Assembly (NCBI RefSeq): GCF_000265205.3
Contig: NC_018000.1
Span: 5,453,001 to 5,517,000 of the forward strand
Reading direction: 5' to 3'
Source of the DNA: Sinorhizobium fredii USDA 257
GTDB lineage: Bacteria; Pseudomonadota; Alphaproteobacteria; Rhizobiales; Rhizobiaceae
DNA: 64,000 nucleotides
Part shown: piece after piece, positions 34,251-39,739 of the stretch
Numbering within the stretch: the stretch's first letter is position 1
Layout: each line of letters starts with the position of its first letter
Made by a program: the position numbers and the translations under genes
Notes under the pieces: generated by a model
Seen by the model: only the letters and a program-made list of their open reading frames with translations
Database searches by the model: none
Told to the model about the DNA's origin: nothing

Positions 34251-34329
34251 GCAGTCACGCGTGGCTGCAAATACCCTCCTTGGGTGTTTCCTCCCTAGAC
34301 TTGACCGCGCCGCTGGCGCGGTTCTTTTT
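34251..34329 (+). ncRNA. mmgR: MmgR small RNA (alpha-r8 / suhB family)
   Basis: About 79 nt. Stem 1 GCAGTCA/TGGCTGC with loop CGCG; then ACCC/GGGT; then the exposed TTTCCTCCCT motif known for this family; then terminator ACCGCGCC/GGCGCGGT plus TCTTTTT. Size (about 77 nt known in S. meliloti), motif and position between the IMPase-family and N-formylglutamate amidohydrolase genes all fit. In S. meliloti it limits polyhydroxybutyrate accumulation with Hfq. Confidence 0.85.
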
Positions 34330-34345
34330 GAGCGCGAGGGGGATC

Positions 34346-35416: not shown

Positions 35417-35779
35417 ATGACTGCGAAAATCCTCCTTGCCGAAGACGACAACGACATGCGCCGCTTCCTCGTGAAGGCGTTGGAAAAGGCTGGCTACAAG
35501 GTCCTGTCCTACGACAATGGCGCCAGCGCCTACGACCGGCTTCGCGAAGAGCCCTTTTCGCTCCTCCTGACCGACATCGTCATGCCAGAGATGGACGGCA
35601 TCGAGCTTGCCCGCCGGGCAACCGAGCTCGATCCGGACCTGAAGGTGATGTTCATCACCGGGTTTGCCGCCGTCGCGCTGAACCCGGACTCGAAGGCTCC
35701 GAAGGACGCCAAGGTGCTCTCCAAGCCCTTCCACCTTCGCGACCTCGTCAACGAGGTCAACAAGATGCTGGCCGCCTGA
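35417..35779 (+). CDS. cpdR: Single-domain response regulator CpdR1
   Basis: 120 aa, only a receiver domain: acidic pocket E9/D10/D11, phospho-acceptor D53, K103. The sequence follows Caulobacter CpdR, which in its unphosphorylated form delivers CtrA and other substrates to ClpXP; in S. meliloti CpdR1 is needed for cell-cycle control and bacteroid formation. It is phosphorylated through the CckA-ChpT relay. The ATG at 35417 starts the canonical MTAKILLAEDD; an upstream in-frame start is unsupported. Confidence 0.93.
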   Translation: MTAKILLAEDDNDMRRFLVKALEKAGYKVLSYDNGASAYDRLREEPFSLLLTDIVMPEMDGIELARRATELDPDLKVMFITGFAAVALNPDSKAPKDAKVLSKPFHLRDLVNEVNKMLAA

Positions 35780-36078: not shown

Positions 36079-36153
<75 letters not shown>

Positions 36154-36202: not shown

Positions 36203-36435
36203 CGTAGTTTCCCTCGGGTTCACTGAACCCGGTAGGAAGGGATTCGGCATGAGCCGGGCCGCTTTCCGCCAAAGCCGATCTCGAGCGTATCTCGCGCGCC
36301 GCGCGCCGGACCGGTGCGACAGTTCAAGTCGACCTGCGGAGCCTCGTCGCCGCGGTCATGCCGGCCGCTTCTTCCGAAGACGTTGGGACACTGCGATCGA
36401 CGGTTTGGGAAAGAGAATTGAGACGACGACTAATC

Positions 36436-36540
36436 GTCACGCAATCGACACGATCGGCGGTTACACAGATCCATCTCGTCATTGACCACGGATGTACTGG
36501 CAATGGCTGCAGGAAGGTCGGGTTCACCCCGGCTTTTTTG
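36436..36540 (+). ncRNA. Copy 1 of a three-copy structured sRNA-like repeat
   Basis: Shares with 37987-38101 and 38864-38979 a leading GTCA..GTCA/GACA-CGATCGGCGG block, a central hairpin and a terminator. Here the hairpin is CATTGACCA / TGGCAATG with loop CGGATGTAC, and the terminator is GGTCGGG/CCCGGC then six T. Relative to the other copies one stem pair changed on both sides (A-T here, T-A there), which argues for a selected RNA structure. I do not recognise the family. Confidence 0.7.
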
Positions 36541-36558
36541 TTGCCAGCTGCTCGTGAG

Positions 36559-36699
36559 ATGAGAGCCAGGAAGGTCGTGGCAACTGCAAAGGGCGTGATT
36601 GAATTTCAGATGAGCATCGAGGCGATCGATCGAGCCATAGACGACGAAAAAAGGCTACACCGGGCTTCAGAAGCGCCACTGGGCGCCCCTCCGGTTTAA
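36559..36699 (+). CDS. Possible 46-aa small protein after repeat copy 1
   Basis: ATG at 36559 to TAA at 36699. It is charged with no membrane segment (contains VIEFQMSIEAIDRAIDDEKR). It begins just 19 bp after the terminator of repeat copy 1. A related ATG-(A/C)GAGCC-(A/G)GG start follows copy 3. The ribosome site is weak and its end overlaps the convergent gene by 4 bp. It could be a real mini-gene or chance. Confidence 0.3.
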   Translation: MRARKVVATAKGVIEFQMSIEAIDRAIDDEKRLHRASEAPLGAPPV

Positions 36700-37169
36700 C
36701 GCTTCCCCAGCCTCCGCAGGTGCCTTTTGTAGCTTCCCGGGAACCGCTTTAGCTTCCCTGCACCGGGTCTGTTCGCCTGTTCTACCAGGTGAGAAAATTC
36801 CGGATACTCCGCTTTCAGCCGCCTTATCTGGCGACCCTGATGGAGGATGGGCACGAGTTCGACAATCGACCGGTACTTGATGAGGAAAGGCAGAAGATCG
36901 CCTCCATCCACCGGTATTTGCCCCACGGCAGAGGCCATCGTCGGCGAAGATTCTTTTCGGGGAACACCGAGCTCTGCCCATGTCTTCACGATGGGCATCC
37001 ACATCGCGAAGCTTGTGGGGATTTCTTCACTGGGGTAGCTGGCACCCTCCTTAACTTCCCCATGCCTCAGAAGCCATTTTAAAGGTGTGCCGGGCTGCAG
37101 AGTGACGGAAAGACGCCACCCCGAGATAAGCCCGGGATTTTGTTTCGCGAGTTCCTGCATACTCGACAT
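36696..37169 (-). CDS. Hypothetical protein (157 aa)
   Basis: I do not recognise it. It is a mixed hydrophilic protein with a predicted helical C-terminal half (LLPFLIKYRSIVELVPILHQGRQI, then a basic tail). It has no signal peptide or membrane span. A GGGGTGG stretch precedes the ATG. GC and codon use look less biased than the neighbouring core genes, consistent with an accessory gene downstream of the tRNA. Confidence 0.55.
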   Translation of the reverse strand: MSSMQELAKQNPGLISGWRLSVTLQPGTPLKWLLRHGEVKEGASYPSEEIPTSFAMWMPIVKTWAELGVPRKESSPTMASAVGQIPVDGGDLLPFLIKYRSIVELVPILHQGRQIRRLKAEYPEFSHLVEQANRPGAGKLKRFPGSYKRHLRRLGKR

Positions 37170-37456
37170 GGTCCACCCCCGGCGTAAAAAATGCTTCGCG
37201 ATGCGGGACCTGTCTAGTTACACATTTGGGTAGGTAAGCCATCGAAAAACAATCCTGAAGCGAGTTTGGGAACCCGCCATCAACCGCACCTCGGCTACGG
37301 CCGAGCGGAGCTCTGCTAGGACCTTGGTCCAACAATAAATGGGCCAGAGGTCTTAGCCCAACTTGTTATTATCCCATTGATATTGCTTGTAATCCTTGAC
37401 TCACACGTGGCCTGTGCGACCCTCGGACTCCTGGTTGTACCCCGGGGAGGCAGGCA

Positions 37457-37654
37457 ATGAGACTCATGAAAGTGAAGAAGAAGTATCTCCGAAAGACCCA
37501 CGAGCCGGGTGTAACCGAACGCCTTGTTGATGGAAGCATCGGCATTCGGGGTGCAGCCCCTGGTTTCTCGTACCGCGCGGAATGGACTCACAATGGGCGT
37601 CCGGGCACTTTCGAGGCGTGGCTGATAAGCAAGGGCGTCATGCCCAAGCAGTAG
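37457..37654 (+). CDS. Hypothetical small basic protein (65 aa)
   Basis: Not recognised. It is short, with a basic N-terminus (KVKKKYLRKTHEPG) and no membrane segment. The ATG follows GGGGAGGCAGGC, a good ribosome site, which is the main support. A second in-frame ATG lies three codons in. It sits alone in the accessory region. Confidence 0.45.
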   Translation: MRLMKVKKKYLRKTHEPGVTERLVDGSIGIRGAAPGFSYRAEWTHNGRPGTFEAWLISKGVMPKQ

Positions 37655-37986
37655 ACTCACAGCGGCCGATCGCTCCTGCTGATCTGCTTCCTGGGCGAGA
37701 CGCATGTAGCGGTGCGCAGCTTCGCTAAGAGAAATCAGGTTCGCGCTTCAGCCATCCCTGAATTCGCCATGCGGATGAGCGGCCTTTCCTCGAGGGTCGA
37801 TCCGGGCTTTCCTCGCGAAGGTCAAGGCATGCGCTGACCGGCTTTCATCCGGCCCTGCGGAATTCGTCCGCCATGGCTTGGCGCGACTTCACCCTCTATT
37901 TCGTTGATATTTTCGACGTTCTTGGGCCGGTAGAGGTATTTCCCATAGGCCGATCGCAGCTGGCCCAGCCGCTTTTTCGGCTGCGG
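37655..37986. other. Non-coding stretch between small gene and repeat copy 2
   Basis: About 330 bp without a supported gene. A minus-strand open stretch at 37822-37995 has protein-like composition (AYGKYLYRPKNVENINEIEGEV) but no start codon, and may be a gene remnant. Confidence 0.35.
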
Positions 37987-38101
37987 GTCACGCGATTGTC
38001 ACGATCGGCGGCTAGGAAAGACCCACTTCGCCTTTGACCACGGATGGACTGGCAAAGGGGAAGATGATGAGGAAGGTCGGATCAGCCCGGCCTTTTTTGT
38101 T
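37987..38101 (+). ncRNA. Copy 2 of the structured sRNA-like repeat
   Basis: Nearly identical to copy 3. Hairpin CCTTTGACCA (38031-38040), loop CGGATGGAC, TGGCAAAGG (38050-38058); purine-rich linker GGAAGATGATGAGGAA; terminator GGTCGG/CCGGCC then six T. The terminator overlaps the 3' end of the convergent gene on the minus strand. Confidence 0.75.
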
Positions 38102-38396
38102 GGGCGAGGTTTCGCGACTGAAGCTCGAGTGGGAGACCTTGGATTGCGTAGCGCGCCAGGCATGTTCCTGACGGTTGCCTGTGCTTGCCGGCAGTGCCCA
38201 ATTGATACTCGAGCTTCGCTGCAAGGCCCATTCGGGACGTCTCACCCGCCAGGAACAGCTTGGTCACAAGCAATGCGGCCGTGTTGAAAAGCCGCTGATC
38301 CGCGACAAGGAGGCTGGCGTCATAGCCGGCCTCGTCCAAGACGGACCGGATCATGTCCAAATCGGAATTCGAGAAATTGTCTACGGTGGAAGACAT
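38082..38396 (-). CDS. Hypothetical protein (104 aa), rhizobial family
   Basis: Start ATG at 38396 after AAAGGAGGACGTC, an excellent ribosome site. The N-terminal half (SNSDLDMIRSVLDEAGYDA, LLVTKLFLAGETSRMGLAAKLE) resembles small conserved hypothetical proteins I recall from Rhizobiales; function unknown, cytoplasmic, mostly helical. Its last codons (about 38082-38101) run through the terminator of repeat copy 2 in antisense, so the C-terminus may have been altered by the repeat. Confidence 0.7.
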   Translation of the reverse strand: MSSTVDNFSNSDLDMIRSVLDEAGYDASLLVADQRLFNTAALLVTKLFLAGETSRMGLAAKLEYQLGTAGKHRQPSGTCLARYAIQGLPLELQSRNLAQQKRPG

Positions 38397-38547
38397 GACG
38401 TCCTCCTTTCGTTGGGGGCCAGGGTAGTCAGCCCTCAAGCAGTAGCGCCCGTAATATTGCTACTGAAGGTTGGACACTGCGCCTTTGCGATCGCAATGGC
38501 AACCGCCCCAAGGTTTTATTTAGATCGCCGCTCGGACATGGCCGACT

Positions 38548-38715
38548 CTAGAGCCTGACGATATCGCCGACCCAATATTCCACCCGATACCGAACCGAGT
38601 TGGCTTGTTCTTTCGCTTCGCGCCAAGTCGCGCGGCTATACCGGCCGTCGCAGGCGATCTGATCGATCGCCATAAGGCCAGCCAATGCAACAATGAAGAG
38701 TAGCGAGCCGCGCAT
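38548..38715 (-). CDS. Possible 55-aa small exported or membrane protein
   Basis: ATG at 38715 to TAG at 38548. It starts MRGSLLFIVALAGLMAID, a short hydrophobic segment typical of a signal peptide or single membrane anchor, followed by a polar part with YSRATWREAKEQA and VRYRVEYWVGDIV. The ribosome site is weak (AAGATG). Not recognised. Confidence 0.4.
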   Translation of the reverse strand: MRGSLLFIVALAGLMAIDQIACDGRYSRATWREAKEQANSVRYRVEYWVGDIVRL

Positions 38716-39058
38716 ATCGACATCTTGTCGATGAATTATTTAGAAAGATCTAACGCGCGACCTCGCCGGTCTTTCGATTTCTGCCGGTCGATACTTGCGA
38801 CGCTCTCGGAGAGGCCCGCATATTCACCGCCGATGCAATCGATCCGTGCTTCTTCGATTGCTTGTCATCCGGTTGTCATGATCGGCGGCTAGGAAAGACC
38901 CATCTCGCCTTTGACCACGGATGGACTGGCAAAGGGGAAGGTGATGAGGAAGGTCGGGTCTACCCCGGCCTTTTTTGTTTGTCCGCAGTGATCGCGAAAA
39001 TGCGAGCCGGGCACAGTCTGCCGACGCGCCGGAGGAAGGCGCCCCTGGCCGCCAGCTT
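38716..39058. other. Accessory spacer holding repeat copy 3
   Basis: About 340 bp whose only recognisable content is repeat copy 3. Just after it, an ATG at about 39001 opens a 21-codon frame that looks like a decayed form of the mini-gene found after copy 1. Confidence 0.4.
38864..38979 (+). ncRNA. Copy 3 of the structured sRNA-like repeat
   Basis: Hairpin CCTTTGACCA / TGGCAAAGG with loop CGGATGGAC as in copy 2, linker GGAAGGTGATGAGGAA, terminator GGTCGGG/CCCCGGCC followed by six T. Upstream GTCAT..TTGTCATGATCGGCGG matches the other copies. All three copies are on the plus strand. Confidence 0.75.
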
Positions 39059-39739
39059 TCAGTGAGCGACCTGCGACGCTGCCGACATCACTTCGTCCGG
39101 AGAAGGCGCACGAAACATGTTGCGGCCGTCCGGCGCAGCTTCGGTAAAGGACCACCGCACAACACCGTCCCGGTCGAGCAGGAACTCACCGACGAGTTGC
39201 GCCATCGCCGCGGCCTCCATCCGACGGTCGTCGTCCGTCATCTCGTAGGCGTCGGCCTTCTGGAGATAATTCGACGCGGCGACCGGATCCATCGGTTCCG
39301 GCAATACGCCAGGCATGTCGATGCGCATCGACATCACCGTCTGCATGCCCATCTTGCGCGGCCAATCGTCCTCGTCTTCGGTGAATTCGAGATTCGGCAA
39401 GCCGAAGGCTCGATGCGAAATCCGGTCGGGATCCGCCGCGGCGAGCAAATTCGGCAAGGGATGGTAGCGGAAATAGAGGCGCGCTCGCTCGATCGGCGTG
39501 TTCACGACGGTCAGGGTCTCGACGCCCTTTTCGCTCAGAGCAGCCTTGAGCTGCGCCATCGTGGCGATCTGCCGGCGGCAGAATGGGCATTGCAGCCCCC
39601 TGAACAGACCCACCAAAACAGGTTTGTATCCCCGAAAATCATCGAGGGCGATCTTGCCCTCCTGGGTGATCGCGTCGAGCACCACGTTCGGCGCCCGGTC
39701 GCCCGGCTGCAATGGCCCGGAGCTGCGATTTTCCGCCAT
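39059..39739 (-). CDS. Peroxiredoxin-like (AhpC/TSA) protein
   Basis: 226 aa thioredoxin-fold protein. It has an N-terminal PGDRAPNVVLDAI strand typical of AhpC/TSA proteins and a CxxC at C51-P-F-C54 (LQCPFCRRQ), which is unlike the single peroxidatic Cys of classical peroxiredoxins. Probably cytoplasmic, thiol redox or peroxide related. No partner reductase is adjacent. The ATG follows GGGAGGAGAACAGCC. Confidence 0.8.
   Translation of the reverse strand: MAENRSSGPLQPGDRAPNVVLDAITQEGKIALDDFRGYKPVLVGLFRGLQCPFCRRQIATMAQLKAALSEKGVETLTVVNTPIERARLYFRYHPLPNLLAAADPDRISHRAFGLPNLEFTEDEDDWPRKMGMQTVMSMRIDMPGVLPEPMDPVAASNYLQKADAYEMTDDDRRMEAAAMAQLVGEFLLDRDGVVRWSFTEAAPDGRNMFRAPSPDEVMSAASQVAH

What the first reader, a model, noticed from the sequence alone, without database searches (positions are those of the whole stretch)
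36436..38979. Three-copy, same-strand structured RNA element downstream of tRNA-Val
Copies at 36436-36540, 37987-38101 and 38864-38979 share a leading GTCA...GATCGGCGG block, a central hairpin with a 9-nt loop CGGATG(G/T)AC, a purine-rich linker (GATGAGGAAGG) and a terminator with six T. All are on the plus strand within 2.6 kb and none belongs to a protein gene on that strand. This is the layout of a tandem sRNA family, like multicopy Qrr or AbcR sets, but I cannot match it to a named rhizobial family.
Basis: partly seen in the sequence, partly recalled or inferred. Interest (0 to 1): 0.78.

Follow-up and report, generated by a model that had tools for sequence, protein, structure and literature searches.

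The report
Three copies of a known sRNA

Summary
In detail: three same-strand copies lie where stated, with a near-identical hairpin, a U-tailed terminator and a shared upstream block. They are not a new family. Rfam RF02346 (ar35) matches copies 2 and 3 above its gathering score and copy 1 below it. The locus is syntenic with SmelC691 of Sinorhizobium meliloti, detected by deep sequencing. Published work already puts SmelC691, SmelB050 and SmrB35 in one multicopy family sharing its central hairpin and terminator with 3'UTRs of cold-shock genes. One correction: the leading GTCA...GATCGGCGG block lies upstream of the 5' end transferred from SmelC691. It is a conserved 11-bp direct repeat plus a -10-like TA. 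It fits the published S. meliloti PhoB strings better than CenR, RpoN or RpoD, but is degenerate in copy 1. The 18-nt hairpin core occurs nine times exactly in this genome, never at 1-2 mismatches. In 23 of 30 loci examined from other families it follows a cold-shock gene. Favoured reading: separately promoted sRNAs that mimic a csp 3'UTR hairpin and titrate its binder; base-pairing remains a close rival. Known kind; the possible phosphate link is the new lead.

The parts
36435..36451 (+). Copy 1: degenerate 11-bp direct-repeat operator (CGTCA N6 CGACA)
   Evidence: 7 of 14 matches to CTGTCAT-N4-CTGTCAT
36461..36466 (+). Copy 1: -10-like element TTACAC
   Evidence: TA at this place in 26 of 27 aligned sequences
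36467..36539 (+). Copy 1: predicted sRNA, about 73 nt, divergent ar35
   Evidence: 5' end transferred from SmelC691 by synteny; ar35 31.3 bits, below the gathering score of 45; fold z -1.98
36484..36501 (+). Copy 1: 18-nt hairpin core GACCACGGATGTACTGGC (bulged A, 9-nt loop)
36511..36539 (+). Copy 1: terminator hairpin and T-run
   Evidence: Fold; not among the sites of the simple scan
37985..38002 (+). Copy 2: direct-repeat operator (GGTCA N6 TGTCA)
   Evidence: 9 of 14 matches to CTGTCAT-N4-CTGTCAT, 10 of 13 to TGWCAM-N4-CYKTCAK
38013..38018 (+). Copy 2: -10-like element TAGGAA
   Evidence: the TA
38019..38098 (+). Copy 2: predicted sRNA, about 80 nt, ar35
   Evidence: 51.9 bits for the Rfam match 37974-38101; 46.4 bits for the transcript part alone, scored as cut off at the 5' end; fold z -4.04
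38036..38053 (+). Copy 2: hairpin core with GGATGGA loop
38069..38098 (+). Copy 2: terminator hairpin and T-run
   Evidence: Fold; not among the sites of the simple scan
38862..38879 (+). Copy 3: PhoB-box-like operator TTGTCATCCGGTTGTCAT
   Evidence: 12 of 14 matches; one of 29 sites in the genome at 2 mismatches or fewer, against 12 for the reversed pattern
38890..38895 (+). Copy 3: -10-like element TAGGAA
   Evidence: the TA
38896..38976 (+). Copy 3: predicted sRNA, about 81 nt, ar35
   Evidence: 49.2 bits for the Rfam match 38858-38979; 46.0 bits for the transcript part alone, scored as cut off at the 5' end; fold z -3.38
38913..38930 (+). Copy 3: hairpin core with GGATGGA loop
38946..38976 (+). 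Copy 3: terminator hairpin and T-run
36079..36153 (+). tRNA-Val(GAC): landmark of the conserved locus
   Evidence: same order in S. meliloti Ak57
35420..35779 (+). cpdR1-like response regulator: landmark
   Evidence: Pfam PF00072; annotated cpdR1 at the syntenic place in Ak57
34266..34336 (+). MmgR/suhB sRNA: landmark used to place SmelC691
   Evidence: RF00519, 60.8 bits

Best explanation
Three copies of the ar35 (RFMSmelB053) sRNA family, of the short SmelC691 form. Each has its own promoter, carrying an 11-bp direct repeat of the OmpR/PhoB response-regulator type and most like a PhoB box. The RNAs, about 73-81 nt, consist of a hairpin with a bulged-A stem and a nearly unchanging loop, followed by a terminator. 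The same hairpin core sits at the 3' end of cold-shock mRNAs. The sRNAs most likely act as mimics that bind and titrate the factor, protein or RNase complex, that recognises that csp 3'UTR hairpin, so that stress signals raising the sRNAs change the fate of csp transcripts and others. Shown here: family, synteny with a detected transcript, upstream position of the repeat relative to that transcript's mapped end, near-invariance of the core, csp linkage. Inferred: response-regulator control (about 0.75), PhoB in particular (about 0.5), decoy action (about 0.4; the idea is that of PMC3927594).
For: Family: Rfam RF02346 at 51.9, 49.2 and 31.3 bits; the transcript part alone 46.4, 46.0 and 29.5. 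Expression of the ortholog: SmelC691, 83 nt, by deep sequencing in S. meliloti 1021. In strain Ak57 the distance from the MmgR 3' end to the ar35 3' end is 2114 against 2115 in 1021, which puts the 5' end 17 nt upstream of the core. Operator: over 27 distinct sequences the first GTCA is invariant and the second is 21, 26, 27 and 26 of 27, while columns 13 to 40 upstream of the box each carry under 0.5 bit. The PhoB string TGWCAM-N4-CYKTCAK averages 11.04 of 13 over 28 sequences against 8.76 (sd 0.14) in shuffles; CenR, RpoN and RpoD stand out less or not at all. The same kind of scan of the genome finds sites before a PstS-like gene and a PhoX gene. Decoy: the same core in csp 3'UTRs and sRNAs, nine exact copies and none at 1-2 mismatches in this genome. 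A csp gene lies upstream in 16 of 38 genus, 14 of 30 family and 23 of 30 other-family loci. Outside the core, pairing exceeds all 200 column shuffles at 7 of 10 pair positions in 130 distinct hairpins.
Against: No binding partner is known or was found. The operator is degenerate in copy 1 (7 of 14) and moderate in copy 2 (9 of 14). Relatedness of the rows inflates the shuffle z-scores, and CenR and RpoN strings also exceed shuffles at the same place (z 7.2 and 5.1). Five rows without the box were dropped. The -10-like box lies closer to the mapped 5' end than usual for sigma-70, and no sigma-70 promoter was found at the copies. Paralogs elsewhere in the genome have other promoters, and a review lists RpoD and RpoH1/2 for SmrB35, so the phosphate link would not apply to all. 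Inner-stem bases can change: GACTACGGATGGACTAGC, a compensating swap, recurs in three listed genus genomes and a near-identical form in a fourth, which fits structure more than strict sequence recognition. In one search pairing with partners slid by 1-2 bases beats the true register at four of ten positions (2, 5, 9, 10). Seven of 30 other-family and nine of 30 family hairpins lack a T-run. SmrB35 gave no Hfq signal, which is neutral for a decoy.
Confidence: 0.45

Rival explanations
1. Ordinary trans-acting base-pairing sRNAs of the ar35 family: the loop GGAUG(U/G)A or the purine-rich linker AGGAAGG pairs with target mRNAs, with several copies raising dosage as in Qrr or AbcR sets.
For: The family is described as trans-encoded sRNA and putative riboregulator in the literature. 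The loop and part of the linker are exposed in the predicted fold. Copies 2 and 3 share a changed loop base, which could shift target choice. The recurring inner-stem swap with an unchanged GGATG loop fits a seed held in a loop.
Against: In this genome the closing stem and bulged A are kept along with the loop, more than a seed needs. The three 7-mers complementary to the loop were absent from 65 csp gene regions, where same-composition control 7-mers averaged 2.2 regions each. SmrB35 was not detected with Hfq. No genome-wide target search was made here.
Confidence: 0.35
2. CsrA/RsmA sponge: GGA in a hairpin loop titrates CsrA, as in CsrB and RsmZ.
For: The loop ACGGAUGU resembles the CsrA binding consensus (recalled). 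Weak sub-threshold Rfam hits to PrrB_RsmZ: 17 bits, 16.4 and 11.6, against a gathering score of 44.
Against: CsrA (PF02599) found in 0 of 40 genomes, own genome included, while 3 of 14 control genomes gave hits.
Confidence: 0.02
3. Relics: former 3'UTR ends scattered by duplication, without function of their own.
For: The module is shared with csp 3'UTRs. Copy number near cpdR1 and tRNA-Val varies from 0 to 3 between genus genomes in the stretches read.
Against: The promoter element is conserved. The ortholog is transcribed. No core copy at 1-2 mismatches is found in this genome, whereas drifting relics should give some.
Confidence: 0.06
4. The direct repeat serves another response regulator (for example CenR or ChvI) and the sRNAs report envelope stress, not phosphate.
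For: Half-sites resemble the S. meliloti CenR repeat AgTCAC; CenR string z 7.2.
Against: CenR sites are inverted, not direct, repeats. The ChvI consensus quoted for S. meliloti is N-GCC-N8-GCC, which this box does not show; the original paper was not held. PhoB fits better.
Confidence: 0.25

Closest known systems
ar35 sRNA family (Rfam RF02346; RFMSmelB053; SmrB35 and SmelB050 on S. meliloti pSymB)
   Same: Central hairpin with GGAUGUA loop, terminator, several copies per genome; SmelB050 and SmrB35 lie about 3 kb apart on one strand of pSymB
   Different: Window copies lack the roughly 50-nt 5' stem-loop of SmrB35, have a different promoter, and form a triplet; copies 2 and 3 have GGATGGA
SmelC691 (S. 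meliloti 1021, 3048822-3048904)
   Same: Same place after MmgR, cpdR1 and tRNA-Val; lacks the first stem-loop; about 80 nt
   Different: One exact core in the 12-kb Ak57 stretch read, three here
Conserved 3'UTR hairpin of rhizobial cold-shock genes
   Same: Identical 18-nt core, often followed by a T-run (82 of 98 core loci of all contexts)
   Different: Part of an mRNA, 17-27 nt after the stop codon in 37 of 53 csp-linked loci, not an independent gene
Qrr / AbcR tandem sRNAs
   Same: Layout only: similar sRNAs in several copies under separate promoters (recalled)
   Different: No Rfam match to either in the window at the gathering score
CsrB/RsmZ decoy RNAs
   Same: Proposed way of working: titration by hairpin loops (recalled)
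   Different: No CsrA found in 40 genomes of the genus and order; one core hairpin per RNA

Membership tests
ar35 (RF02346) | Covariance-model score at or above the gathering score (45 bits) | tested here: met
   Copies 2 and 3: 51.9 and 49.2 bits; transcript part alone 46.4 and 46.0, scored as cut off at the 5' end. Copy 1: 31.3 and 29.5, not met
ar35 (RF02346) | Second hairpin with conserved loop GGAUGUA | tested here: met
   Copy 1 exact; copies 2 and 3 GGAUGGA, one base changed
ar35 (RF02346) | Rho-independent terminator as last hairpin | tested here: met
   the simple scan sees only copy 3's
ar35 (RF02346) | First 5' stem-loop (three stem-loops in all) | tested here: not met
   The sequence at that place is upstream of the mapped 5' end. 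[quoted passage not shown]
ar35 (RF02346) | Transcript detected | not testable with these tools
   Only the S. meliloti ortholog is known to be transcribed
Qrr sRNAs | Match to a Qrr family model (that Rfam holds one is recalled) | tested here: not met
   Four matches at the gathering score in the window, none Qrr
AbcR sRNAs | Match to the family model (that Rfam holds one is recalled) | tested here: not met
   Four matches at the gathering score in the window, none AbcR
CsrB/RsmZ sponge RNAs | CsrA/RsmA present in the host | tested here: not met
   PF02599 in 0 of 40 genomes, own included
PhoB regulon | Direct-repeat box CTGTCAT-N4-CTGTCAT upstream | tested here: inconclusive
   Copy 3 12 of 14, copy 2 9 of 14, copy 1 7 of 14
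PhoB regulon | PhoB-dependent induction in low phosphate | not testable with these tools

The most novel reading that the evidence does not exclude
A phosphate-starvation (PhoB) signal drives a locally multiplied set of sRNAs that copy the 3'UTR hairpin of cold-shock mRNAs and soak up an unidentified alphaproteobacterial RNA-binding factor, linking phosphate status to csp mRNA fate through an RNA mimic.
Probability: 0.18. Interest if true: 0.72.

Novelty: new member of a known kind. Interest (0 to 1): 0.38.

Why it matters
It identifies the triplet as a locally expanded ar35/SmelC691 locus and not a new family, and moves the conserved upstream block from RNA to promoter. SmrB35 has been in print since 2007, and the 2011 study calls the function of the family unclear. 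A near-invariant hairpin shared with cold-shock mRNAs, plus a response-regulator-type box, turns that into two simple tests: phosphate induction, and protein pull-down with the 18-nt hairpin.

Tried and rejected
CsrA sponge: attractive because of the GGAUGU loop, rejected because CsrA was found in 0 of 40 genomes. RepABC antisense RNA: RF00489 appears only at 14.4 bits against 50 in the terminator of copy 3. Base-pairing of the loop with csp genes themselves: none of three complementary 7-mers in 65 csp regions. Sigma-70 promoter by simple consensus: none at the copies, and the RpoD string no better than shuffles. ORFs beside or over the copies: of nine proteins scanned only the AhpC/TSA-type protein and the response regulator have a Pfam match above cut-off. 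The first paper search was swamped by unrelated hits to the term ar35. A search for papers joining cold shock, 3 UTR, sRNA, Rhizobiales and hairpin since 2012 gave none.

Not in print, as far as searched: (12 of 12 papers listed; 20 of 129 listed, most of them for the motif GGAUGUA in other fields; 3 of 3 listed) look for these RNAs by name. In the passages I saw of PMC2780559, PMC2573895, PMC2848018, PMC2873474, PMC3927594 and PMC7143759 no PhoB box is given for SmelC691 or its paralogs; I did not read those papers whole, and PMC3616915 holds none of the five names I looked for. Most subscription papers are not held and supplements could not be read.
Full report
What is there. Three + strand copies lie between tRNA-Val (36079-36153) and an AhpC/TSA-type gene (39059-39739, -). 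They align with 80% mean column identity over 182 columns, flanks included. Each has a block GTCA...GATCGGCGG, a hairpin with loop CGGATG(T/G)AC, and a terminator hairpin with six T. The linker GATGAGGAAGG is present in copies 2 and 3 only. A simple consensus scan found no promoter at the copies and only copy 3's terminator.

Which family. Rfam RF02346 (ar35) matches copies 2 and 3 at 51.9 and 49.2 bits (gathering score 45) and copy 1 at 31.3. The window's own genome has five matches above the gathering score and ten with E below 0.01, one of them partial; 150 of 841 first-look candidates were scored. In a set of 40 relatives, all 24 genomes of the genus (own included) have 3-9 matches at E 0.001 or better, and 0 of 16 genomes of other families do.

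Literature. SmrB35 was found in S. meliloti with a transcript of 139 nt, raised about 4-fold by luteolin and not detected in nodules (PMC2780559, passages). A second copy 3 kb upstream was noted in 2008 (PMC2573895, passages). SmrB35 gave no signal in Hfq co-precipitates (PMC2848018, passages). A 2020 review lists SmelB053/SmrB35 with RpoD and RpoH1/2 (PMC7143759, passages). SmelB050, SmelB053 and SmelC691 were put into one multicopy model, RFMSmelB053, with loop GGAUGUA; its second and third stem-loops are shared with 3'UTRs, 29 of 33 of them of cold-shock genes, and an interceptor role was suggested (PMC3927594, passages). So the decoy idea is published; it is adopted here, not invented.

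Locus identity. In S. meliloti Ak57 the order hisN, N-formylglutamate amidohydrolase, cpdR1, tRNA-Val, ar35, ilvD is found, with MmgR upstream as in the window. SmelC691 of strain 1021 is at 3048822-3048904 (PMC2873474, passages); MmgR (SmelC689) ends at 3046789. The 3'-end distance is 2115 there and 2114 in Ak57, which identifies the Ak57 element as SmelC691 and puts its 5' end 17 nt upstream of the hairpin core. Transferred to the window, the RNAs are about 36467-36539, 38019-38098 and 38896-38976; none of these transcripts has been observed in this organism.

The leading block is not RNA. Around cpdR1 and tRNA-Val I took 31 stretches of 3.3-12.4 kb from genus genomes, plus one more from G042. 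Of the 31, 23 have at least one core match at 2 mismatches or fewer on the + strand, 4 of these have two, and 8 have none within the stretch; the window alone has three. Of 33 upstream sequences in hand (3 window, 29 from the 32 stretches, 1 Ak57), 5 lack the repeat and were set aside, and one was a duplicate. In the remaining 27 the first GTCA is invariant and a second, 11 bp on, is kept at 21, 26, 27 and 26 of 27, followed by TA at the -10 place in 26 of 27. Columns 13-40 upstream of the box carry under 0.5 bit each; nearer columns and some spacer columns are also conserved. Five published strings were tried (PMC2573895, passages; PMC9561847, passages). The PhoB form TGWCAM-N4-CYKTCAK scores 11.04 of 13 on average over 28 sequences against 8.76 in shuffles (z 16); CTGTCAT-N4-CTGTCAT z 12; CenR 7.2; RpoN 5.1; RpoD -0.8. 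Relatedness of the rows inflates these contrasts. CTGTCAT-N4-CTGTCAT has 29 sites at up to 2 mismatches in the genome against 12 for its reverse. Copy 3 is one of them, and so are sites before a PstS-like and a PhoX gene, though two others lie in transposase-like repeats. Copies 2 and 1 match 9 and 7 of 14, so the case is good for copy 3 and weak for copy 1.

The core. GACCACGGATGNACTGGC occurs nine times exactly in this genome and never with one or two mismatches. Three of the nine follow cold-shock genes and six do not, the three of the window among them. Matches are present in 33 of 33 genus genomes (up to 2 mismatches), 149 of 199 family genomes (up to 1) and 64 of 297 genomes drawn from the order, the own family included (exact). 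Other genus genomes do hold imperfect copies; GACTACGGATGGACTAGC, with a compensating swap in the inner stem, is listed in three genomes and a near-identical form in a fourth (list cut off), so the stem is selected as structure too. By a regular-expression test for a cold-shock protein upstream, 16 of 38 genus loci, 14 of 30 family loci and 23 of 30 loci of other families are csp-linked. These are loci that the searches returned, not a random sample, and a few distant calls are doubtful. A T-run follows within 90 nt in 38 of 38, 21 of 30 and 23 of 30. In 130 distinct hairpins collected by the pattern, the first outer pair holds in 130 of 130 as TA, CG or TG, and pairing exceeds all 200 column shuffles at 7 of 10 positions; but a partner slid by 1-2 bases pairs more often than the true one at positions 2, 5, 9 and 10, so the outer stem is uneven. 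That csp linkage prevails outside the family suggests that the csp 3'UTR is the older setting; this is inference.

The three copies. In a tree of 27 rows copy 1 groups with copies of five other genomes (support 89/93), and copies 2 and 3 fall with four G-loop copies and then two T-loop ones in an open, weakly supported clade; copy 2's nearest row is copy 3 (82%), copy 3's is one of G023 (89%). So the window joins two subtypes at one locus; whether copy 2 arose by a recent doubling of copy 3 is not resolved. Two standalone paralogs elsewhere in the genome have a TTGATT-N17-TACATT promoter instead (read by eye), and SmrB35 has its own promoter and an extra 5' stem-loop that the window copies lack. 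So one RNA core is placed under several promoters.

Function. A base-pairing seed would need mainly the loop to be kept; a protein site would need loop, bulge and stem shape. CsrA was not found, so the partner is unknown. I favour titration of a csp 3'UTR-binding factor at about 0.4, with base-pairing close behind. The phosphate link rests on the box alone: PMC8829014 reports 45 sRNAs changed by nitrogen or phosphate limitation, but the text I saw does not name ar35 members (passages, section).

Noticed in passing
34266-34336 (+): MmgR/suhB sRNA (RF00519), 60.8 bits, upstream of cpdR1 as in S. meliloti Ak57.
   Followed up: partly
   Followed up: no
L002, L004 (own genome 5689 kb and 5234 kb); L186:2504; L215:896; L217:3344: A second promoter class of ar35 copies, TTGATT-N17-TACATT in the two own copies, with an inverted repeat TGATT...AATCA that recalls the LysR-type motif noted for SmrB35.
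   Followed up: no
G041:C7:210428, G007:C1:1488605, G019:C1:3703692, G002:C1:1968091: A paralog core GACTACGGATG(G/A)ACTAGC with a C-G to T-A swap in the inner stem recurs in these genus genomes.
   Followed up: no
L230, L246: csp-linked core hairpins with no T-run within 90 nt, so the hairpin is not merely part of a terminator.
   Followed up: no
L218-L220, L222: Core without a recognised csp gene, followed about 35 nt on by a CCCCGG stretch, in one other family of the order (f27).
   Followed up: no
L184 (CP090106.1): A record named S. meliloti Ak57 plasmid pSymB is 3.72 Mb and carries the cpdR1-tRNA-Val-ilvD region, whose sRNAs have chromosomal (SmelC) names in strain 1021; the label looks wrong.
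   Followed up: no
38862-39065 (+): A 67-aa mechanical ORF runs over copy 3; no family search was made for it.
   Followed up: no
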